The notes below the pieces were generated by a model, which did not search any database, was not told the origin of the DNA, and saw only the letters and a list, made by a program, of their open reading frames with translations. Shown here piece after piece: positions 434 to 9,907 of a stretch of DNA of 9,907 bases; position 1 is the first letter of the stretch; each line of letters opens with the position of its first letter. A program made the position numbers and the translations under genes. Origin of the DNA: Candidatus Zhuqueibacterota bacterium. GTDB lineage: Bacteria; BS750m-G25. The stretch spans positions 1 to 9,907 of the forward strand of contig JADHWK010000069.1 in NCBI GenBank assembly GCA_016783505.1, read 5' to 3'.

Positions 434-581
434 GCCACTAAGGCACCAAGACACAAAGGAGAAAAATGAGTTTTAAATCCATTTTACAAAGCGAAGAATC
501 CATAGCAAAAAGATATTTAACATGCTGCTCATTAAAAATGGAAAGATTTATTTTATCTTGGTGACTTAGTGTCTTTGTGGC
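434..581. repeat. 148-bp element with inverted ends made of CACNAAGN octamers
   Basis: The left arm (434-458) reads GC followed by three octamers of the form CACNAAGN, the last ending one base short. The right arm (557-581), read on the minus strand, has the same form. Aligned end to end without gaps, the two 25-base arms agree at 20 positions. All five mismatches fall on the two degenerate positions (N) of the octamer, so the pattern is conserved and not just a chance low-complexity match. The roughly 98 bp between the arms holds no recognisable gene; a 32-codon reading frame (466-564) has an AAAGGAG-like sequence before its ATG but no recognisable product. The structure resembles a small non-autonomous mobile or palindromic repeat, but no target-site duplication was identified. 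It ends 3 bp before the ribosome binding site of the beta-helix gene, so it must lie within that gene's leader or promoter region. Confidence 0.7.
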
Positions 582-584
582 TAA

Positions 585-590
585 AAGGAG
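585..590 (+). promoter_or_regulatory. Ribosome binding site (AAGGAG) fixing the beta-helix gene start
   Basis: AAGGAG sits 7 bases before the ATG at 598 and is the strongest Shine-Dalgarno match in the region. It rules out the in-frame GTG at 577, which lies upstream of it and inside the right arm of the inverted repeat. The ATG at 601 is also in frame and one codon away; it would change the protein only by one methionine. Confidence 0.8.
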
Positions 591-597
591 ACACAAA

Positions 598-2709
598 ATG
601 ATGAAATCAATTTTTAGCATTGCTAGCGTTCTGCTATTTTGTGGAACAACCTTTGCTGAGATCATTCATGTTCCTGGTGATCAGCCGACTATCCAGGCGG
701 GGATTGATGTTGCGGTAAATGGAGATACTGTCTTGGTAGATACGGGTCGGTATGTGGAAAACATTAACTACAACGGTAAGAACATTGTGGTTGGGTCACT
801 ATTTCTTACAACAGATGATACATCCTATATCACCCAGACGGTGATTGACGGCAACCAGAATGGTAGTGTGGCGACTTTTATAAATGGTGAAGATTCTAGT
901 GCAATATTGACTGGTTTTACTATCACGAATGGGCTGGGTGAAAGTTCTTGGCCTTACAGTGGTGGTGGTATTACTTGTAGAAATAATTCCCGCCCCACGT
1001 TGTCCGACGTAATTATTAGTGAGAATTCCGCTGAAAGTCGTGGTGGTGGTATGTATTGCTCTGATGATTCCAACCCTACATTGACCAATGTGACCATCAG
1101 CGGGAATTTTTCTGCATATAATGGCGGTGGGATTTACTTCGATTTCAATTCCAGCGTAACTTTTGACTCTGTCAATCGTTGTAATATTTTTTTGAACAAT
1201 GCTGGTGGCATAGGATATGACCTTTATGCTGGCTACAATGTTCCCACTATCAATGTAGTAGTGGATACATTCACTGTAATGAACCCAATGGACTGTCACG
1301 CCCATCCAATTAACAACTTCACCTTTGATATTTTAAATGCTATAATAGAGCAGGTAGAGGCTGATTTGTATGTCAACCCTAACGGCGATAATAACAACAC
1401 CGGTCTTTCGCCGGATGAGCCCTTACAAACCATTACTTTTGCGATCACAAAAACCTATGCGGATAGTTTTCATCCCCATACCATTTATCTTGCTGAGGGA
1501 ACCTATAGTCCATCAACCAATGGGGAGAGTTATCCTTTGAACTGTATAAGCTATATTTCTATATCCGGTACTTCTGAAGAAACAACCATTTTAGATGCAG
1601 AAGGTGAAAGTAGGGTCATAAATTGTTATTATGGCAACAATTTTAATATTGAAAAAATGATGGTCCAGAATGGGGTAACTTCTTCAAATGGTGGCGGTAT
1701 TTACTGTTATTATTCCAGCCCGATTCTGCAGAATGTTACCATCAGCGGGAATTTTGCTTGGCATTACGGTGGCGGGATTTACTGTTGGAATTCCAGCGCG
1801 ATCTTGTCCAATGTGACCATTAGTGGAAATCATGCTTTTTTTAACGATGGTGGAGGTATTTACTGCTATGGTGGCAGCCCAACCTTTGTCAATGTGACCA
1901 TTAGCGGAAATTGGGGTGGTGGACCGATCCCCCGTGGCGGCGGGATTGCGTTGGCACATTCCAGTCCCATATTGACCAATGTGACCATTAGCGGAAATTA
2001 TGCTTCACATGGTAGCAATATTTTTCTATTTGGTTCCTGCCCTATTTTGGTGAATACCATTCTCTGGAATGATTACTCATCAGGTATCTATTTCAGCCAC
2101 CATCCGGATGGCTTTTCTATCATAACCATTTCTTACTCAAATGTGCGGGGTGGTTATGATGGTATTATAAGCAATGATTACGGCATCGTGAATTGGCTGG
2201 AAGGCAATATCAATGCTGATCCGCTGTTTGTCGGTGGGGACCCATTTGATTACCATCTTACAGAAAATTCACCTTGCATTGATGCTGGAACAGCGTTCTT
2301 CATCTGGAATGATGATACATTAATAAATCTTCCAGACACCGTCTATTATGGAAATGCGCCAGATATGGGGGCTTATGAATCCGAGTTTGAGGGGATAGTA
2401 GATATTAGTTCAGAAATACCAAAAACGTTTACCTTTTCCCAGAATTATCCCAATCCGTTTAACCCAACCACCACCTTTCGGTTCGGACTTCCCAGACAGG
2501 CTTATGTAACCTTGAAGGTTTACAATCTCCTCGGTCAAGAAGTAGTGACTTTAGTTGATGAACGCAAATTAGCCGGTTACCATCAAGTAAAGTGGGATGT
2601 CCCGCAAAGCGGGATTGGTTCAGGGATATATTTCTACCGTATAGAAGCCCACTCCAGCGGGAAGGCTGGGAAGTTTGTGAAGGTGAGAAAGTGTTTATTG
2701 GTGAAATAG
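598..2709 (+). CDS. Secreted right-handed beta-helix protein with type IX secretion C-terminal sorting domain
   Basis: A 703-residue exported protein. Residues 1-21 form a signal peptide ('MMKSIFSIASVLLFCG...FAE'). Next comes 'IHVPGDQPTIQAGIDVA..GDTVLV..GRYVENI', the typical entry strand of a pectate-lyase-like parallel beta-helix. Rungs rich in 'GGGIYC...S.P.L.NVTISGN' follow. NVTISGN occurs five times (near residues 164, 379, 405, 432 and 461), with 26-29 residue spacing among the last four. A middle segment, 'LYVNPNGDNNNTG..PDEPLQTI', matches the DUF1565 pattern, as if a second helix module starts there. From about residue 610 a T9SS type A sorting domain is clear: 'NYPNPFNPTT' (616-625), 'VYNLLGQEVVTL', 'AGYHQVKWD', 'SGIYFYRI' and a basic final strand. 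No catalytic residues for a polysaccharide lyase could be identified, so enzyme versus adhesin or structural protein is open. Flanking intergenic regions suggest it is transcribed alone. AT-richer than the carboxylase gene. Confidence 0.92.
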   Translation: MMKSIFSIASVLLFCGTTFAEIIHVPGDQPTIQAGIDVAVNGDTVLVDTGRYVENINYNGKNIVVGSLFLTTDDTSYITQTVIDGNQNGSVATFINGEDSSAILTGFTITNGLGESSWPYSGGGITCRNNSRPTLSDVIISENSAESRGGGMYCSDDSNPTLTNVTISGNFSAYNGGGIYFDFNSSVTFDSVNRCNIFLNNAGGIGYDLYAGYNVPTINVVVDTFTVMNPMDCHAHPINNFTFDILNAIIEQVEADLYVNPNGDNNNTGLSPDEPLQTITFAITKTYADSFHPHTIYLAEGTYSPSTNGESYPLNCISYISISGTSEETTILDAEGESRVINCYYGNNFNIEKMMVQNGVTSSNGGGIYCYYSSPILQNVTISGNFAWHYGGGIYCWNSSAILSNVTISGNHAFFNDGGGIYCYGGSPTFVNVTISGNWGGGPIPRGGGIALAHSSPILTNVTISGNYASHGSNIFLFGSCPILVNTILWNDYSSGIYFSHHPDGFSIITISYSNVRGGYDGIISNDYGIVNWLEGNINADPLFVGGDPFDYHLTENSPCIDAGTAFFIWNDDTLINLPDTVYYGNAPDMGAYESEFEGIVDISSEIPKTFTFSQNYPNPFNPTTTFRFGLPRQAYVTLKVYNLLGQEVVTLVDERKLAGYHQVKWDVPQSGIGSGIYFYRIEAHSSGKAGKFVKVRKCLLVK
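1732..1998 (+). repeat. Near-identical in-frame repeats encoding NVTISGN rungs
   Basis: Four 21-base copies of the pattern AAT-GTK-ACC-ATY-AGY-GGN-AAT lie at 1732-1752, 1810-1830, 1891-1911 and 1978-1998, spaced 78, 81 and 87 bases apart; a fifth, more distant copy is at 1087-1107. All are in the reading frame and each marks one turn of the beta-helix. The DNA is more alike than the protein requires, since the same codons recur for several residues. This suggests recent duplication or gene conversion among rungs. Between copies the sequence diverges freely except for 'GGGIYC'-type glycine runs. Confidence 0.8.
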
Positions 2710-2867: not shown

Positions 2868-2924
2868 GGATCTCAGAATACAGTAAAATTTTTGCAATAG
2901 CCCCATAAATAGGTGAATAGAGCA

Positions 2925-4466
2925 ATGGATAAAATTGAACAACTGCGAGAATTACGGGAAAAGGCCCGGATGGGGGGAGGGAAGGAGCGGATTGAAAAAC
3001 AGCACGCCAAGGGCAAATTGACGGCTCGGGAGAGGCTGGATCTGCTTCTGGACGAGGGGAGCTTTGAAGAGGTGGACATGTTCGTCGCCCATCGGTGCAC
3101 CGATTTTGGACTGGAAAAACAGAAGATTATGGGCGATGGGGTGGTCACCGGCCACGGACGCATTGACGGTAGGCTGGTCTATGTGTTCTCCCAGGATTTT
3201 ACCGTCTTCGGGGGATCGCTGTCTGAGGCCCACGGTGAAAAGATCTGTAAGATCATGGACATGGCCATGAAGATGGGAGCCCCGGTGATCGGGCTCAACG
3301 ATTCGGGCGGCGCCAGGGTGCAGGAAGGGGTGGTTAGCCTGGGGGCCTACGCCAATATCTTCCTGCGCAATACCTTGGCTTCGGGGGTGATACCCCAGAT
3401 CTCAGCCATCATGGGCCCCTGCGCCGGGGGAGCGGTGTATTCTCCCGCTATTACCGACTTCATCTTTATGGTGAAAAAGACCAGCTATATGTTCGTCACC
3501 GGCCCCAAAGTCGTCAAAACGGTGACCCATGAAGATGTCAGCTCTGAGGGGCTGGGTGGGTCCGAGGCCCACGGCGTCAAATCTGGGGTGTCCCACTTTA
3601 GTTGCGAAAACGAGCCCCACACCCTGGAAAAGATCAGAAAGCTGATCGGTTTTATCCCCCAGAACAACCTGGAAGAACCCCCGATCCTGCCCTGTGAAGA
3701 TGACAAAAACCGCCAAGACGAGAAATTGCTGACCATCGTCCCCTACAGCCCCACTAAACCCTATGACATGAAGGAGATTATCACTAAGGTAGTGGATAAC
3801 GAGGATTTTTTTGAGGTGCACGAACACTTTGCCCCCAACATCGTGGTCGGGTTTGCCCGCCTGAACGGCAGGTCGGTGGGCATCATCGCCAATCAGCCCG
3901 CTGTTTTGGCCGGGTGTCTGGACATCAATTCGTCCAAGAAGGGAGCCCGCTTCATCCGTTTCTGTGACGCCTTCAACATCCCCATTATTACCTTTGAGGA
4001 TGTTCCCGGGTTTCTGCCGGGCACCGATCAGGAGTGGGGGGGGATCATTACCAGTGGGGCCAAACTCCTGTATGCTTATTGCGAGGCTACCGTGCCCAAA
4101 CTGACGGTGATCACCCGCAAGGCCTACGGGGGGGCCTACGACGTCATGAACTCCAAACACATCCGGGGGGACGTGAACTTAGCCTGGCCCACCGCCGAGA
4201 TCGCCGTAATGGGTCCCAAGGGAGCCGTGGAGATCGTATTTCAGAAAGAGATTCAGAAGGCTGCCGATCCCGAGGCATTGGAAGAACAGAAAATTATCGA
4301 ATACACGGAGAAGTTTGCCAACCCATACGTAGCCGCCGCCCGGGGCTACATTGACGACGTCATCGAGCCACACCAGACCCGGCCCAGGCTGATCAGAGCC
4401 CTGGAGATGCTCCAGACCAAGGTGGATTTGAACCCGAAGAAGAAACATGGGAATATTCCACTTTAA
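2925..4466 (+). CDS. mmdA/pccB: Acyl-CoA carboxylase carboxyltransferase (beta) subunit, propionyl-CoA carboxylase / methylmalonyl-CoA decarboxylase type
   Basis: A 513-residue protein, standard length for the family. It moves a carboxyl group between carboxybiotin and an acyl-CoA. The N-terminal carboxyltransferase half carries '[17 protein letters not shown]', '[14 protein letters not shown]', '[13 protein letters not shown]' and '[16 protein letters not shown]' (from residue 164), glycine-rich loops expected to form the acyl-CoA oxyanion site. The C-terminal half carries '[24 protein letters not shown]', '[10 protein letters not shown]' (399-408), '[18 protein letters not shown]' and the classic end 'KKHGNIPL'. 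In Streptomyces enzymes an Asp in the 'GGAYDVM' segment favours acetyl/propionyl-CoA over longer acyl-CoAs; the equivalent here would be D406. Start: ATG 2925, with AGGTG 9 bases upstream; an in-frame GTG at 2913 lies within that site and is less likely. No biotin carboxylase, biotin carrier or membrane decarboxylase subunit lies beside it, so carboxylase and sodium-pump decarboxylase cannot be told apart from context. Clearly GC-richer than its neighbours. Confidence 0.95.
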
Positions 4467-4526
4467 TCGAATTTAGCTCTTAGCCTTACTGGATGTCTCG
4501 GAATTTCTAAAACTTAGTGGTAATCC

Positions 4527-4600
4527 TGTCATTCCCGTCCCGAAGTTTCGGGACTAATTCGACTGAATGGATTCTTGCTTTAAAGACCGCAGGAATGACA
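4527..4600. repeat. Palindromic intergenic repeat element bounded by TGTCATTCC / GGAATGACA
   Basis: TGTCATTCC (4527-4535) and its exact inverse GGAATGACA (4592-4600) bound a 74-bp element. Just inside the left end is a second dyad, GTCCCGAA / TTCGGGAC (4537-4554), with a 2-base centre. The 16-base core of this dyad (4538-4553) matches the hairpin at 2786-2801 in 15 of 16 positions. Ends of the form TGTCATTCC are familiar from REP/MITE-like intergenic repeats in many genomes, but I cannot count copies here. Nothing else gene-like is seen in 4467-4730. The element starts 60 bases after the carboxylase stop and could also serve as its transcript end. Confidence 0.65.
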
Positions 4601-4730
4601 ACGGGTTAACTGTTACAAATGTTGAAATACTGATCCAAGACCTGTAGGGGAATATTGGAAGACTTGAAAATTGAGCTCCATCCATTCATCCTTACATTAT
4701 TTCAATTTTTTAGTGATTCTGGGAGTTAAA

Positions 4731-5333
4731 ATGCGCACCTTCAATAAATTCTTTGTTGCGATTAGTAGTTGCTTCCTGATCTATCATCTTAGCGGGTTGG
4801 TTTACGCTCAGGAGACGGATACTACAGATTTATATCTGAATATACACAAAAAGTGGGGATCAAGAATTAATGAGGTGAAGGAAATTTTAAAAGATGAGAT
4901 CATTGAAGAAGGACAGATCACCAGCTTGATCGAATACGGTAAAATTGCCATAGACCCTGACCATCGGATTTACCAGATAAAGGCAAAGAGAACTGATGAT
5001 CCTTTCAATACCATTCTCTACCAATATACCTTTCTGGACGACCAATTGTTCAAACTGGAGATTTACCCAAAGACCAAAAGACTGCCTTATGATAGGCTGC
5101 TTAGGGCGGTTTTTCAGGAATTTGGACCCTATGAGGAAAAATGGGTATGGCAGCCCCGTTCCAAAAATACCGGGGTGAAAACGTTGACATGGGAGAAAGA
5201 ATACACGAAAATTACCTTCAAATGCTATTTTGCTGACTTATGGGGAAAGGGTAAATATCGCTACAGTGATTTTAGTATAACCTATGTAAATAAGACTATT
5301 GAGGAATTTATTAAGGATTTCAATAGAAATTGA
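4731..5333 (+). CDS. Small exported protein of unknown function
   Basis: A 200-residue protein I do not recognise. Residues 1-26 look like a signal peptide: 'MRTFNK', then a hydrophobic stretch, then 'GLVYAQ' with probable cleavage after the Ala; there is no lipobox Cys at the cleavage point. The mature part opens with 'KWGSRINEVKEIL', reminiscent of the 'WG.s..eV' helix seen in several small periplasmic proteins. It continues with 'LYQYTFLDDQLFKLEI', an antiparallel-strand pattern, then 'FGPYEEKWVW' and 'KTLTWEKEYTKITFKCYF'. Together this hints at a compact alpha/beta periplasmic domain; that is inference. The start is ATG 4731 with GGGAG 5 bases upstream; the longer frame opening with TTG at 4671 lacks a ribosome binding site and would bury the signal peptide. 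It ends 24 bases before the flippase gene and is probably co-transcribed with it. AT-rich. Confidence 0.72.
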   Translation: MRTFNKFFVAISSCFLIYHLSGLVYAQETDTTDLYLNIHKKWGSRINEVKEILKDEIIEEGQITSLIEYGKIAIDPDHRIYQIKAKRTDDPFNTILYQYTFLDDQLFKLEIYPKTKRLPYDRLLRAVFQEFGPYEEKWVWQPRSKNTGVKTLTWEKEYTKITFKCYFADLWGKGKYRYSDFSITYVNKTIEEFIKDFNRN

Positions 5334-5357
5334 TCCATTAAATGAAAGTGATTTAAG

Positions 5358-6896
5358 TTGCAAGATCAGTTGGGGACAGGTCATCTGCAGGAAGAACCGA
5401 TCCATTTAGCCCAGAAGACAACCTTTGTGGGAATCGGGAGACTGGCCAATTCCTTAGCCAGACTGGCGGTTAACATCATCCTCGCCCGGGCGCTGTTGTC
5501 CAAGGAATTATTCGGTCAGTATCAGCAAGTGTGGCTTTATTTTAATACCTTCTTTCCCATCTTCATCTTCGGCATCCCGGCCACCGTCTATTACTTTTTC
5601 CCGAGGCTGAAGGAGGAGGAAAAGAGCCCTTTTGTCAATCAGACAATCTTTATTTTATTTGTATTTGGCCTGATCTTTGGGTTGGGTCTTAAGGGGTTTT
5701 CACCTTTAGTAGCTGAAAGATTTCAGAACCCAGATCTGGTTTGCTATTACCGGAGCTTTGCGGTTTACGCCTTTGCTATGGTGGCGGGGGCGTTTTTCGA
5801 TTCGGTGTTCATCGTTCTCAATAAGCACCGCATTTATTCGGTTATTGTCGTGGTAGAAGCCCTGTTCTTTCTGGGATTGGTTACTATCCCCTTATGGCTG
5901 GGCGCGCCCTTAGACCTGGTCTTTCTGCTGGTGACCCTGCTGGCCCTGACCAAGCTGGCCTTTGTCTTAAGCCATCTGCATTTTTCTCCAAATGGTATTA
6001 AGATTAAAATTAAACTTCCCCAATGGAATTTCCTTAAAAGGCAACTTCGATATGCTTATCCTATTGGACTGAGCACGGCGGTGGCCATCGTCTCGCTCTA
6101 CATAGACAAAAACGTGGTGGCCGCCTTTTTTGATACGGCTACCTATGCCGTCTATTCCATCGGGGCCATGGAAATTCCCTTTGTGGGGGTTATCTTAGCC
6201 TCCATCACCGCTGTTTTGATGCCCGAGGTGAGCCGATTGCATCATACCGGTGCAGTGGCGAGGGTGGCGGCGCTCTGGAAGGGGGTCATTTCAAGGACCT
6301 CGCTTTTGATTTTCCCCCTGTTTTTCTTCTTATTTGTCTTTGCCGATCGGATCATTGTCCTGGTATTTTCGGAAAGATATGCAGCGGCGGCGTTGCCCTT
6401 TCGGATCTATCTTTTTTTGCTGCCCCTGCGGATAACGACCTATGGGAATATCCTGGTGGCCCTGGGAAAACCCCAGGTTGTCTTTCGGACCTGTCTTTTA
6501 AGTATGATATTGAACCTCATTCTGAGCATTTTCCTGGTTAAAACCCTGCTCGATTCAGGCTATGAAAAAGCCTATGTAGGGGCAGCGATTTCAACAGTGG
6601 TGGTGACTTTTATTCAAATCTCTATTTATCTTACGGTTATTACCCGGACGATAAAGGTTGGTCTCAAGGGGGTATTTCCGTTTTTAGAAATGGGAAAAAT
6701 CGCCGCTGTTTCATTACTAAGCGTGTTAATCTGTACGGTTGCCCTATTGGTTTTTTCCAATAACCTAACAATTTTGATCGCTGCCTTTCTCCTTTTCAGT
6801 GGGACATTCCTTTTTAGCATAGACAGGTTTAGAATCAGCGGTTTTGTGCTCAAAGACTGGAGAAAATTTCTGGGATTTGGGGAAAGAAAGGTGTAG
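5358..6896 (+). CDS. Polysaccharide/lipid flippase of the MOP superfamily (Wzx/MviN-like)
   Basis: A 512-residue, strongly hydrophobic polytopic inner-membrane protein, the usual length for Wzx/O-antigen flippases. The first membrane region 'TTFVGIGRLANSLARLAVNI' followed by 'LLSKELFGQYQQVWLYFNTF' and 'GIPATVYYFFPRL' is typical of the polysaccharide biosynthesis protein family: an N-terminal helix, the 'LG.y' type turn, then an alternating series of roughly 12-14 membrane segments. 'YAYPIGLSTAVAIVSLYIDKNVVAAFFD...YAVYSIG' marks the second repeat half. Such proteins move undecaprenyl-linked sugar chains from the cytoplasmic to the periplasmic face. The substrate cannot be read from sequence. 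The start is uncertain: TTG 5358 is the first possible start after an in-frame TGA at 5349, with only a weak AAAGTG upstream; a second TTG (5370) and a GTG (5427) are alternatives. No glycosyltransferase genes are adjacent, which is unusual for a Wzx. The C25 protease gene follows after 4 bases. Confidence 0.85.
   Translation: MQDQLGTGHLQEEPIHLAQKTTFVGIGRLANSLARLAVNIILARALLSKELFGQYQQVWLYFNTFFPIFIFGIPATVYYFFPRLKEEEKSPFVNQTIFILFVFGLIFGLGLKGFSPLVAERFQNPDLVCYYRSFAVYAFAMVAGAFFDSVFIVLNKHRIYSVIVVVEALFFLGLVTIPLWLGAPLDLVFLLVTLLALTKLAFVLSHLHFSPNGIKIKIKLPQWNFLKRQLRYAYPIGLSTAVAIVSLYIDKNVVAAFFDTATYAVYSIGAMEIPFVGVILASITAVLMPEVSRLHHTGAVARVAALWKGVISRTSLLIFPLFFFLFVFADRIIVLVFSERYAAAALPFRIYLFLLPLRITTYGNILVALGKPQVVFRTCLLSMILNLILSIFLVKTLLDSGYEKAYVGAAISTVVVTFIQISIYLTVITRTIKVGLKGVFPFLEMGKIAAVSLLSVLICTVALLVFSNNLTILIAAFLLFSGTFLFSIDRFRISGFVLKDWRKFLGFGERKV
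6887..6893 (+). promoter_or_regulatory. Ribosome binding site of the C25 peptidase inside the flippase 3' end
   Basis: AAAGGTG lies within the last codons of the flippase, directly before its TAG stop (6894-6896), and 7 bases before the ATG at 6901. Translation of the protease is therefore probably coupled to that of the flippase. Confidence 0.7.
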
Positions 6897-6900
6897 ACAA

Positions 6901-9900
6901 ATGAGAACTTATCTTGTAAATGGTATCCTTCTTTTGGCATTTATTCTTGTCCAGGGTTCCTTAATATCGGTCCGGGCGGGAGTGTCATCCGAACATACGA
7001 TTTTATTTGAAAGAAATGACATTCGAACGGATAAAAGGGGAGAGTATGATGTAATCTATCTGGGGAACTGTGATATTTCCCGGGATGAAGGGAAACCTCA
7101 ACTTCCCGTATACTATTTCTCGATAGAAATTCCTTTAAATCAAATTATCGAGGGGGTTGAGGTAGTATTAACCACAAGCGAGAATCTACCGAACAATTTT
7201 TACGTGTTTCCAGCCCAACCATCCTCCATCTTAATGAAAGAGGGGGAACAGATTACCTTCACCCCGCCCGATGAAGTTGTTTATAATTCCAGCGACCTGT
7301 TTCCCCCACGGATTATTGAGGCGGGGAAGCCCGGTTTTAAGCGGGGAACCAAACTTGCCAGCTTGAAGATATATCCGCTGCAGTATCGGCCCGCTGATGG
7401 GACGATGATTTTTCATTCAGAGATAAAATTCCGGATTCATTATTCTTTGCTTGAAGTGAGCGAACAAGGAATCAGATCGCTGATGGATACAGAAGACGCT
7501 CCTCAAAAGCAGTATGTAATTATAACTGATGAGTCCTTAGTTAACGCTTTCCAGCCCCTGGGTGACTGGAAGAGGAAAAAGGGGGTTCCTGATACGATAG
7601 TTACCACATTATGGATTTATAGTCAGTACCCTGGCACCGATGACCAGGAGAGGATAAGAAATTTTATTGTAGATGCCTATCAAAATTGGGGAACGGTTTG
7701 GGTTCTTTTAGGTGGGGATACCGATGTGATACCGGCACGGGTAGCTTTTGCGATGGACTGTGAGGCCGGTTTTCATGATGATGAGAACGAATTACAAGCT
7801 GATCTTTACTATGCCGCCTTGGACGGGAACTGGGATGAAAATCAAAACCAAATCTATGGTGAGGTTGCCGATAGCGTTGATCTGTATCCAGAGGTATTTG
7901 TGGGACGGGCCCCGGTCAGCACCCAGGCTCAGGCCCAGGTTTTTGTGGATAAGATATTGACGTATGAGAAGAATCCGGACCTGAGCTATCTTGATCAAGC
8001 GCTGTTTTTTGCCGAAATTCTGTGGTTTGACCCATACACGAACGAGGGGATTGCCAAGGATATGATTGATGAGCAATTTCTGCTGCCCCAGTTTGATCCG
8101 GTCACCAAGCTTTACGAGGCCAACGGAAACGAATCCCCGGCTTTGGTTATCGCCGCCATAGAGTCTGGTCAGAATATTATTAATCATGCCGGACACGGTG
8201 GAACAGCCGCCATGGGAGCCGGCGCCGGAACCCTGCGCAATGCGGATATAGATAGCCTTAACCATCCAGATAAATACGGCGTTCTCTTTTCTATCGGGTG
8301 CTGGACGACGGCCTTCGATTATGACTGCATTGCCGAACATTGGGTGCAAAATCCGGCTGGCGGGGGGGTGGCCTTCATCGGGAACTCCCGATACGGATGG
8401 GGCTCGCCGGGAAATCCAGGATACGGTATCTCCGACCTGTTCGACCGACGGTTCTATCAGTCTATTTTTGAGGATGAAATTTACAATATCGGGGCGGCCC
8501 TGGCGGGGGCAAAAGCCCATTTCATTCCCGTCTCCCAGGGGGAAAATGTCTATCGGTGGCATCAATATCAGCTTACCCTGCTGGGCGACCCGCAGATGCC
8601 CCTGTGGACGGATGTTCCCCATAACCTGACCGTATCTTTTCCCCACCAGATTCCCGTTGGGCAAAACAACTTTACGGTTACGGTTACCGATAGTTCAGAC
8701 CGGTCTATTGAGGGGGCCAGGGTCTGCCTGTTTAAGGAAAATGGGGTTTATAAATTTGGGTTCACCGACATCAGCGGACAAATAACCTTTGATATTGCTC
8801 CTATTTCCCCCGGGGATATGGATGTTACGGTGACAGCTCATAATTTCTTGACGTTTGAGGAAGCGGCATCTGTCTTCGCCGAGGGGCCTTATGTGGGGGT
8901 CTCGGACGTCCAATTTGAGGATGCCAATAGCGATGGAACCTTAAATCCCGGGGAAAGAATAGAGATGTCGCTGACCTTGAAGAATTTCGGCAATCAGACC
9001 GCCCAGGAGGTTGCGGTGGATTTTTCTACCTCCTGTCCCTTTATTACCATTCTCAACTGGAATGGGGATTTCGATGATATTGTCCCAGGCGATTCGGTCA
9101 CCGTGGACAGTGCAGTGGTTTTTGATCTCTCCGGGGACTGCATGAACGGAAAGGTGGGTTATCTCGACTTGCTGGTAAGCGATGCCGAAAACCATAACTG
9201 GCCGCATACCATTGGGATAACGGTGGCCACACCGATTTTGGGATTTGGGAATTATACCATAGATGATGGGGATAGTCTACCTGAGCCCGGCGAAGAGGTG
9301 GCAATGATAGTTATCTTAGAAAATAAGGGCTTAGCCTATGCTGCAAATACCAGTGCCATCCTGACAACCCTGGATGAATACCTGACCGTTACCGTGGATA
9401 GCGCAGGGTATGGGAATATTATTCCCGATTCATCGGGCACCTCTTCAACTGCTTACCAGCTTTCTATCGCCGAAAATTGTCCTGATACCCACTTTGCCTT
9501 CTTAAATCTAAATTTGTTTACCGGGAACTATACGTTTTCTGATACGTTCATCTTTGCAGTAGGCGAGGCCGGTTTCTTCGATGATATGGAAAGCGGGGAA
9601 GGGGGATGGACCCATTCCGGGGATGACGATTTATGGGGAATCTCATCAAATAGATCCCATTCCGGTAGCTATAGTTGGTACTGCGGTGAGGAAGCTGACT
9701 CCCAATACCATAATGATATGGAGGCCTCACTGGTCTCCCAGGAGATTATCTTACCCCCGGCTTCTTATCTGAGCTTCTGGCATTGGTATGAAGTGACCAT
9801 CTATGGGGTGGATGGTTTTTATGTGGAGATCACGGATGATGGGGGTGAAAATTGGACCACCTATGATTTTATCGGCAGTGGAGGGGCTTTGGTTAATCCC

Positions 9901-9907
9901 CTGCTTC
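6901..9907 (+). CDS. Secreted C25 (gingipain-family) cysteine peptidase, 3' end beyond the window
   Basis: This frame has no stop from ATG 6901 to the last base (1002 residues seen). Residues 1-26 are a signal peptide ('MRTYLVNGILLLAFILVQGS...VRA'). About 30-200 is a beta-rich propeptide-like region, including 'GKPQLPVYYFSIEIP'. About 204-575 is the Peptidase_C25 domain: 'QYVIITDESL', 'LGDWKRKKGV', 'VWVLLGGDTDVIPAR', 'PEVFVGRAPVST', the catalytic-His motif 'NHAGHGG' (His432), the catalytic-Cys motif 'LFSIGCWTTAFD' (Cys467), and the domain end 'YQLTLLGDPQMPLW'. The His-Cys spacing of 35 is close to that in gingipain R (33). An Ig-like region follows (about 575-655). Then come two related beta-sandwich-like repeats, opening near 669 and 788, with 'DANSDGTLNPGE' and 'DDGDSLPEPGE'. 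From about 892, 'FFDDMESGEGGWTHSG' begins a jelly-roll/MAM-like surface domain. By analogy with family members a T9SS sorting domain is expected past the window edge. The gene follows the flippase by 4 bases. Cleavage specificity cannot be predicted. Confidence 0.93.
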   Translation, partial: MRTYLVNGILLLAFILVQGSLISVRAGVSSEHTILFERNDIRTDKRGEYDVIYLGNCDISRDEGKPQLPVYYFSIEIPLNQIIEGVEVVLTTSENLPNNFYVFPAQPSSILMKEGEQITFTPPDEVVYNSSDLFPPRIIEAGKPGFKRGTKLASLKIYPLQYRPADGTMIFHSEIKFRIHYSLLEVSEQGIRSLMDTEDAPQKQYVIITDESLVNAFQPLGDWKRKKGVPDTIVTTLWIYSQYPGTDDQERIRNFIVDAYQNWGTVWVLLGGDTDVIPARVAFAMDCEAGFHDDENELQADLYYAALDGNWDENQNQIYGEVADSVDLYPEVFVGRAPVSTQAQAQVFVDKILTYEKNPDLSYLDQALFFAEILWFDPYTNEGIAKDMIDEQFLLPQFDPVTKLYEANGNESPALVIAAIESGQNIINHAGHGGTAAMGAGAGTLRNADIDSLNHPDKYGVLFSIGCWTTAFDYDCIAEHWVQNPAGGGVAFIGNSRYGWGSPGNPGYGISDLFDRRFYQSIFEDEIYNIGAALAGAKAHFIPVSQGENVYRWHQYQLTLLGDPQMPLWTDVPHNLTVSFPHQIPVGQNNFTVTVTDSSDRSIEGARVCLFKENGVYKFGFTDISGQITFDIAPISPGDMDVTVTAHNFLTFEEAASVFAEGPYVGVSDVQFEDANSDGTLNPGERIEMSLTLKNFGNQTAQEVAVDFSTSCPFITILNWNGDFDDIVPGDSVTVDSAVVFDLSGDCMNGKVGYLDLLVSDAENHNWPHTIGITVATPILGFGNYTIDDGDSLPEPGEEVAMIVILENKGLAYAANTSAILTTLDEYLTVTVDSAGYGNIIPDSSGTSSTAYQLSIAENCPDTHFAFLNLNLFTGNYTFSDTFIFAVGEAGFFDDMESGEGGWTHSGDDDLWGISSNRSHSGSYSWYCGEEADSQYHNDMEASLVSQEIILPPASYLSFWHWYEVTIYGVDGFYVEITDDGGENWTTYDFIGSGGALVNPLL

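What the first reader, a model, noticed from the sequence alone, without database searches (positions are those of the whole stretch)
4731..9907. Candidate surface-display cassette: small exported protein, flippase, and giant C25 protease
Three genes run in one direction with gaps of 24 and 4 bases, and the protease's ribosome binding site lies in the flippase's last codons. In Porphyromonas, C25 gingipains leave by T9SS and are anchored to A-LPS, whose biosynthesis requires sugar-chain flipping. A flippase translationally coupled to a C25 protease, with no glycosyltransferases around, suggests a link between glycan export and protease anchoring, or a flippase-fold protein with a new role in protease export. 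The small exported protein could be a chaperone, inhibitor or assembly factor for the protease.
Basis: partly seen in the sequence, partly recalled or inferred. Interest (0 to 1): 0.65.

Follow-up and report, generated by a model that had tools for sequence, protein, structure and literature searches.

The report
Flippase and secreted protease, glycan cluster
The three genes are real, but they look like the cut-off front of an ordinary surface-sugar gene cluster in an uncultured bacterium that also carries ordinary type IX-secreted proteins, and the flippase-protease pairing is not seen in any other genome examined.

Summary
The trio is real: a small exported protein (4731-5333), a Wzx/MOP-type flippase (5358-6896) and a C25 protease (from 6901). 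The window is one whole contig that ends inside the protease. Its last 139 bases are identical to the first 139 of another contig (C63), with no other match in the assembly. Joined, the protease is 1155 aa and ends in a T9SS type A sorting domain. It is followed on the same strand by a second T9SS-tailed protein, two methyltransferases, GT2, two GT4s, a second flippase and a polysaccharide deacetylase; 384 bases later comes a PorZ (A-LPS delivery protein, above NCBIfam cut-off). "No glycosyltransferases around" is therefore a contig-end artefact. The flippase-C25 pairing is not conserved: 0 of 14 genomes holding both families, and 0 of 36 relatives' neighbourhoods, against glycosyltransferases in about 20 of 36. 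The genome has about 9 C25 genes, about 80 T9SS tails, 6 flippases, and SprA, PorU, PorV and PorZ. Best reading: an ordinary envelope-glycan flippase and an ordinary T9SS cargo protease in one variable surface-gene island. A link to the sugar anchor stays open, because PorZ borders this cluster and PorU-PorV another. A new flippase role has no support. The small protein is an orphan.

The parts
4731..5333 (+). Small exported protein, 200 aa, orphan; probable signal peptide (cleavage after ...LVYA, or less likely lipobox ISSC), predicted alpha-alpha-beta4-alpha-beta4-alpha order at low confidence
   Evidence: ORF; no Pfam/NCBIfam/PHROG/PDB relative; only itself in 98 genomes apart from one spurious hit inside a carbohydrate-binding-type lipoprotein; AlphaFold mean pLDDT 55
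5358..6896 (+). Wzx/MOP-superfamily lipid-linked glycan flippase (start codon uncertain; relatives begin about 13-17 residues later)
   Evidence: PF01943 1.4e-14, PF13440 2.2e-10; relatives 28-41% identical across many phyla
6880..6892 (+). Purine-rich Shine-Dalgarno-like stretch GGGGAAAGAAAGG inside the flippase's last codons, upstream of the protease ATG
   Evidence: sequence
6901..9907 (+). Peptidase C25 (gingipain clan) precursor: signal peptide, C25 propeptide, catalytic domain (HAGHG at residues 429-433, SIGC at 464-467), C25 Ig-like domain; cut by the contig end; completed on contig C63 (1155 aa in all) with MAM-like domain and T9SS type A sorting domain
   Evidence: PF01364 1e-68, PF08126 5.6e-11, PF03785 6.8e-6; 139-base unique exact overlap with C63 and frame continuation; PF18962 1.6e-11 and PF20773 on the continuation
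9769..9907 (+). 139 bases identical to the first 139 bases of contig C63; the junction to the rest of the cluster
2913..4466 (+). mmdA-like carboxyltransferase (methylmalonyl-CoA decarboxylase alpha subunit family): housekeeping left border of the island
   Evidence: PF01039 1.3e-205, TIGR01117 854 bits; GC 0.55 against 0.27-0.48 in the cluster

Best explanation
This is the upstream part of an envelope-glycan gene island in an uncultured bacterium of an otherwise unsampled phylum; the contig break hid the rest. The flippase is an ordinary Wzx-type transporter that turns undecaprenyl-linked sugar units across the inner membrane. The C25 protease is an ordinary T9SS type A cargo: exported by Sec, translocated by SprA, its tail removed by PorU, then released or joined to a surface glycolipid. 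They probably share a transcript with the glycan genes downstream, but there is no dedicated flippase-protease partnership. Shown: the gene order, families, the T9SS tail, the T9SS components, and the lack of conservation of the pair. Inferred: co-transcription, the flippase's substrate, and that PorU processes this protease.
For: Unique exact 139-base overlap C6/C63 with the reading frame continuing into a T9SS tail. Downstream co-directional genes with gaps from about -4 to 92 bases: beta-helix protein with T9SS tail, methyltransferase, GT2, GT4, second flippase, polysaccharide deacetylase, GT4, FkbM methyltransferase; then 384 bases and PorZ. All other C25 genes in the genome also have a T9SS-type tail in the same frame (PorU's own tail included). 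C25 beside the flippase in 0 of 14 genomes with both families and 0 of 36 flippase neighbourhoods, while GTs lie within 10 kb in about 20 of 36. Low and uneven GC in the cluster (MT 0.30, GT2 0.29, FkbM 0.27) between mmdA (0.55) and the metB-like gene (0.53) fits an exchangeable surface-gene island. About 80 T9SS tails and 6 flippases in 2.5 Mb make a flippase next to some cargo gene unsurprising.
Against: The join to C63 rests on an assembly overlap, not on reads. The protease sits between the flippase and the glycosyltransferases with very short gaps, which is tighter than a random scatter of cargo genes needs. PorZ at the end of the cluster hints at a more specific link. No close relative of the genome exists in the collections, so conservation could only be tested at 28-41% flippase identity.
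Confidence: 0.72

Rival explanations
1. Anchor-glycan operon: the cluster makes the T9SS anchor glycolipid (an A-LPS analogue) of this phylum. The flippase exports the anchor glycan, cargo proteins are co-expressed with it, and PorZ delivers it to PorU for transpeptidation.
For: PorZ (NF052228, 284 bits, above the 260 cut-off; matches solved PorZ 5m11) lies 384 bases past the glycan genes. Two type A cargo genes lie inside the cluster. PorU, PorV and a T9SS-dependent M6-like protein lie on C51 next to another glycan cluster with an initiating transferase, a flippase and Wzy/WaaL. In P. gingivalis PorZ delivers A-LPS to PorU (PMC8545088) and a Wzx homologue is needed for A-LPS and for the A-LPS-bound forms of RgpB and HBP35 (PMC3684754). 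Some relatives of this flippase sit in clusters whose proteins resemble WbpA/B/D/E, the linking-sugar pathway (L071, L079; by sequence inspection only).
Against: The Wbp/Vim linking-sugar genes were not found in the cluster. The C51 cluster beside PorU-PorV is an at least equally good candidate. PorZ is separated by 384 bases and reads as its own unit. The pair is not conserved elsewhere.
Confidence: 0.2
2. Dedicated flippase-protease cassette, or a flippase-fold protein acting directly in protease export, with the small protein as chaperone or inhibitor.
For: Gaps of 24 and 4 bases and the ribosome-binding site inside the flippase gene.
Against: No co-occurrence in any other genome tested. 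Other C25 genes in the same genome have no flippase beside them. T9SS cargo crosses the inner membrane by Sec (established knowledge). The small protein has no relatives.
Confidence: 0.03
3. Pure chance neighbours: a transcription boundary lies between flippase and protease or just after it, and the glycan genes belong to a separate unit.
For: Promoter- and terminator-like sites are at shuffle level, so boundaries cannot be excluded. GC content shifts abruptly along the cluster. Two flippases suggest two clusters abutting.
Against: Every gap from the small protein to the FkbM gene is 92 bases or less and all are co-directional.
Confidence: 0.05

Closest known systems
Gingipains RgpB/Kgp of Porphyromonas gingivalis (peptidase family C25)
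   Same: C25 propeptide, catalytic domain with HxGHG and Cys motifs, Ig-like domain, T9SS type A sorting domain; matches Kgp at 2e-14 and RgpB at 1.6e-11
   Different: Only about family-level similarity; different phylum; preceded by a flippase gene; MAM-like domain before the tail; specificity unknown
Wzx/PST-type O-antigen flippases (MOP superfamily), e.g. PGN_1033 and PorS of P. gingivalis
   Same: Polysacc_synt family, likely undecaprenyl-linked glycan export; a Wzx is required for A-LPS in P. gingivalis (PMC3684754)
   Different: No direct comparison with PGN_1033 or PorS was possible; substrate unknown; adjacent to a cargo gene
T9SS attachment complex PorU-PorV-PorQ-PorZ
   Same: PorU (775 bits), PorV-family protein and PorZ (284 bits) are in the genome; PorZ borders this cluster
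   Different: PorQ was not sought; PorU-PorV lie on another contig; no evidence on the anchor's chemistry here
O-antigen/exopolysaccharide gene clusters of candidate phyla (Cloacimonetes, Delongbacteria, Eisenbacteria loci fetched here)
   Same: Same flippase family beside GT4, methyltransferases, GNAT or hexapeptide transferases
   Different: None carries a C25 gene; one (L050) has a T9SS-tailed protein about 1.5 kb away

Membership tests
Peptidase C25 / gingipain-like T9SS cargo | C25 catalytic domain above the Pfam cut-off | tested here: met
   232.7 bits vs 23
Peptidase C25 / gingipain-like T9SS cargo | His and Cys catalytic motifs in place | tested here: met
   HAGHG at 429-433 and SIGC at 464-467, read against gingipain motifs from general knowledge
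Peptidase C25 / gingipain-like T9SS cargo | C-terminal T9SS sorting domain | tested here: met
   On the continuation contig: TIGR04183 5.6e-13, PF18962 1.6e-11; depends on the C6-C63 join
PorU sortase | Full-length NF033707 match above cut-off 420 | tested here: not met
   91 bits only; the genome's PorU is on C51 with 775 bits
Wzx/Polysacc_synt flippase | Polysacc_synt family match above cut-off | tested here: met
   PF01943 54.6 vs 28.2 bits
Wzx/Polysacc_synt flippase | Lies in a glycan assembly cluster with glycosyltransferases | tested here: met
   GT2 and two GT4 on the continuation contig
Wzx/Polysacc_synt flippase | Transport of lipid-linked sugar | not testable with these tools
   needs biochemistry or complementation
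MurJ lipid II flippase | TIGR01695 above cut-off | tested here: not met
   35.9 vs 235.6 bits
Conserved flippase-C25 cassette | Genes stay together in other genomes | tested here: not met
   0 of 14 genomes, 0 of 36 loci
T9SS anchor (A-LPS-like) cluster | T9SS attachment protein associated with the glycan cluster | tested here: inconclusive
   PorZ 384 bases downstream here; no comparison across genomes possible
T9SS anchor (A-LPS-like) cluster | Wbp/Vim linking-sugar genes present | tested here: inconclusive
   none seen in the cluster; whole genome not searched for them, assembly about 60% complete

The most novel reading that the evidence does not exclude
The cluster that starts in this window makes the T9SS anchor glycolipid in a phylum outside the Bacteroidota, with flippase, two cargo proteins and the A-LPS-delivery protein PorZ encoded side by side; this would give a genetic route to unknown T9SS anchor sugars in uncultured phyla.
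Probability: 0.2. Interest if true: 0.6.

Novelty: new member of a known kind. Interest (0 to 1): 0.3.

Why it matters
As it stands it shows how a contig end can make an ordinary glycan cluster with T9SS cargo genes look like a new cassette. If PorZ and PorU-PorV prove to sit beside glycan clusters more often than chance across T9SS-bearing phyla, gene neighbourhood could be used to find the sugar anchors of T9SS proteins where nothing is cultured; the linking sugar is known in only two Bacteroidales species in the work read here (PMC7468200).

Tried and rejected
Single-protein scans for the flippase in viral and genome collections found nothing; an alignment query worked. The genome is the only held member of its phylum, so no near relatives could be compared. 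The small protein: Pfam, PHROGs, NCBIfam and PDB by sequence gave nothing. The one weak genome hit (L011) falls inside a 266-aa lipoprotein that looks like a carbohydrate-binding type and was rejected as chance. AlphaFold without an alignment gave pLDDT 55 and Foldseek no match below E 0.03, so no fold is claimed. Idea that the C25 is PorU itself: rejected (91 vs cut-off 420 bits; PorU found on C51). Idea that the C63 deacetylase is the DUF7033-type protein beside the flippase in Eisenbacteria and Delongbacteria: not supported (hhalign probability 0.3%). Promoter/terminator scans were at background.

Full report
CHECK OF THE OBSERVATION. The window is the whole of contig C6 (9907 bases) of a draft genome of 2.5 Mb in 89 contigs, estimated 60% complete, and the only held species of its phylum. 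The three genes exist as described: small exported protein 4731-5333, flippase 5358-6896, C25 protease from 6901 to the contig end. The 24- and 4-base gaps and the Shine-Dalgarno-like run inside the flippase's last codons are there, but the flippase's TTG start is doubtful because relatives begin about 13-17 residues later. In seven stretches of this genome 23 of 65 same-strand neighbours (automatic ORF calls) are 30 bases or less apart, so tight packing is usual.

THE CONTIG CONTINUES. The last 139 bases of the window are identical to the first 139 bases of contig C63, and a search of the genome with the last 200 bases finds only these two places. Reading on, the protease frame stays open and ends at 1155 aa with a typical T9SS type A tail (YPNPFNPKTYIQYNLAKPGKVTLKVYNLLGQE...; TIGR04183 5.6e-13, PF18962 1.6e-11) after a MAM-like domain. 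All other C25 genes of the genome also have such a tail in the same frame. The join is an assembly overlap, not read evidence; I put it at about 90%.

WHAT LIES DOWNSTREAM. On C63, same strand: beta-helix protein with T9SS tail (585-2312), SAM methyltransferase (2332-2985), GT2 (2998-3894), GT4 (3923-4984), a second Polysacc_synt flippase (4981-6384), polysaccharide deacetylase/DUF2334 (6381-7934), GT4 (7931-8968), FkbM methyltransferase (9061-9828), then after 384 bases PorZ (10213-12504; NF052228 284.5 bits against a cut-off of 260; similar to solved PorZ 5m11), then a methylmalonyl-CoA epimerase-like ORF (named from sequence only). Gaps from the small protein to the FkbM gene run from about -4 to 92 bases. 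GC content is uneven and low (0.27-0.48) between mmdA (0.55) and the metB-like gene after PorZ (0.53). This is the anatomy of a variable envelope-glycan island.

IS THE PAIR CONSERVED? Relatives of the flippase (E <= 1e-12) were found in 22 of 289 other genomes of the same domain. Of 15 examined, 14 have C25 genes (1-15 each), and none lies near the flippase: most are on other contigs, and the nearest on the same contig is about 96 kb away. In 36 distinct flippase neighbourhoods (20 from those genomes, 16 more from the alignment-based scan; two of its 18 repeat genomes already used), none holds a C25 domain by a profile built from this genome's own copies, one holds a T9SS tail (L050), and about 20 hold glycosyltransferases (21 by the automatic count, of which one or two may be overlapping-frame artefacts). 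Some of these contigs are short, so the neighbourhoods are not all 10 kb deep. By rough arithmetic, 9 C25 genes among about 2300 genes and 6 flippases give about a 5% chance that some flippase abuts a C25 in this genome, and about 45% that one abuts some T9SS-tailed gene (inference).

THE T9SS IN THIS GENOME. SprA (C3), PorU (C51, 775 bits), a PorV-family protein and a T9SS-dependent M6-like protein next to PorU, PorZ (C63), and about 80 tails above cut-off. PorU-PorV lie on the same contig as, and a few kb from, another glycan cluster with an initiating glycosyl-phosphotransferase, a flippase and a Wzy_C/WaaL protein. In P. gingivalis, PorZ binds A-LPS and delivers it to PorU (PMC8545088), a Wzx homologue is needed for A-LPS (PMC3684754), and the linking sugar comes from the Wbp/Vim pathway (PMC7468200).

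MECHANISM. Most likely the flippase moves a lipid-linked glycan unit and the protease is one of many type A cargo proteins; both are encoded in a surface-gene island and probably co-transcribed. Whether the glycan made here is the one to which PorU attaches cargo is open: PorZ at the border is suggestive, the C51 cluster is an equally good candidate, and no linking-sugar genes were seen here. A direct role of the flippase in protease export has no support and conflicts with what is known of T9SS (Sec, then SprA).

THE SMALL PROTEIN. It has a probable signal peptide and no relatives in any library or genome searched. A low-confidence model (pLDDT 55) suggests alternating helices and beta sheets; no fold assignment is justified. 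It could be a cell-envelope protein of any kind.

VERDICT. Real genes, ordinary families, a misleading contig end, no conserved cassette. The residue of interest is the closeness of T9SS attachment genes (PorZ here, PorU-PorV on C51) to glycan clusters in an otherwise unsampled phylum.

Noticed in passing
contig C63 (locus L101) 10213-12504: PorZ homologue above the NCBIfam cut-off directly after a glycan cluster, outside the Bacteroidota as far as the lack of phylum relatives suggests.
   Followed up: partly
contig C51 (loci L013, L097): PorU, PorV-family protein and T9SS-dependent M6-like protein lie a few kb from a glycan cluster with an initiating transferase, flippase and Wzy/WaaL: a second closeness of T9SS attachment genes and glycan genes in one genome.
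   Followed up: partly
window 577-2709: Right-handed-repeat (polymorphic-outer-membrane-like) protein with T9SS type A tail; similar repeat proteins with tails recur in the genome (e.g. C63:585-2312; another repeat protein with the same opening motif lies near a C25 gene at L016:14634-16199).
   Followed up: partly
window 2913-4466 and C63:12733-13146: mmdA-like carboxyltransferase and a methylmalonyl-CoA epimerase-like ORF, genes often found together, flank the low-GC glycan/cargo island on either side, as if the island were inserted between them.
   Followed up: no
contig C1 35091-41485: One full and three partial copies of an initiating glycosyl-phosphotransferase (PF02397) within 6.5 kb, one with a stop codon: decaying duplicates.
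   Followed up: no
loci L071 (Planctomycetota) and L079 (Tannerellaceae): Relatives of the window flippase sit next to proteins that by their sequence look like WbpB/WbpD/WbpE enzymes, a possible hint to the sugar moved by this flippase family.
   Followed up: partly
contig C1 about 179000-188500 (locus L015): Two large C25 proteases (about 1710 and 1670 aa) in tandem, a few to 24 bases apart depending on start codon, with a small protein just upstream of the pair.
   Followed up: no
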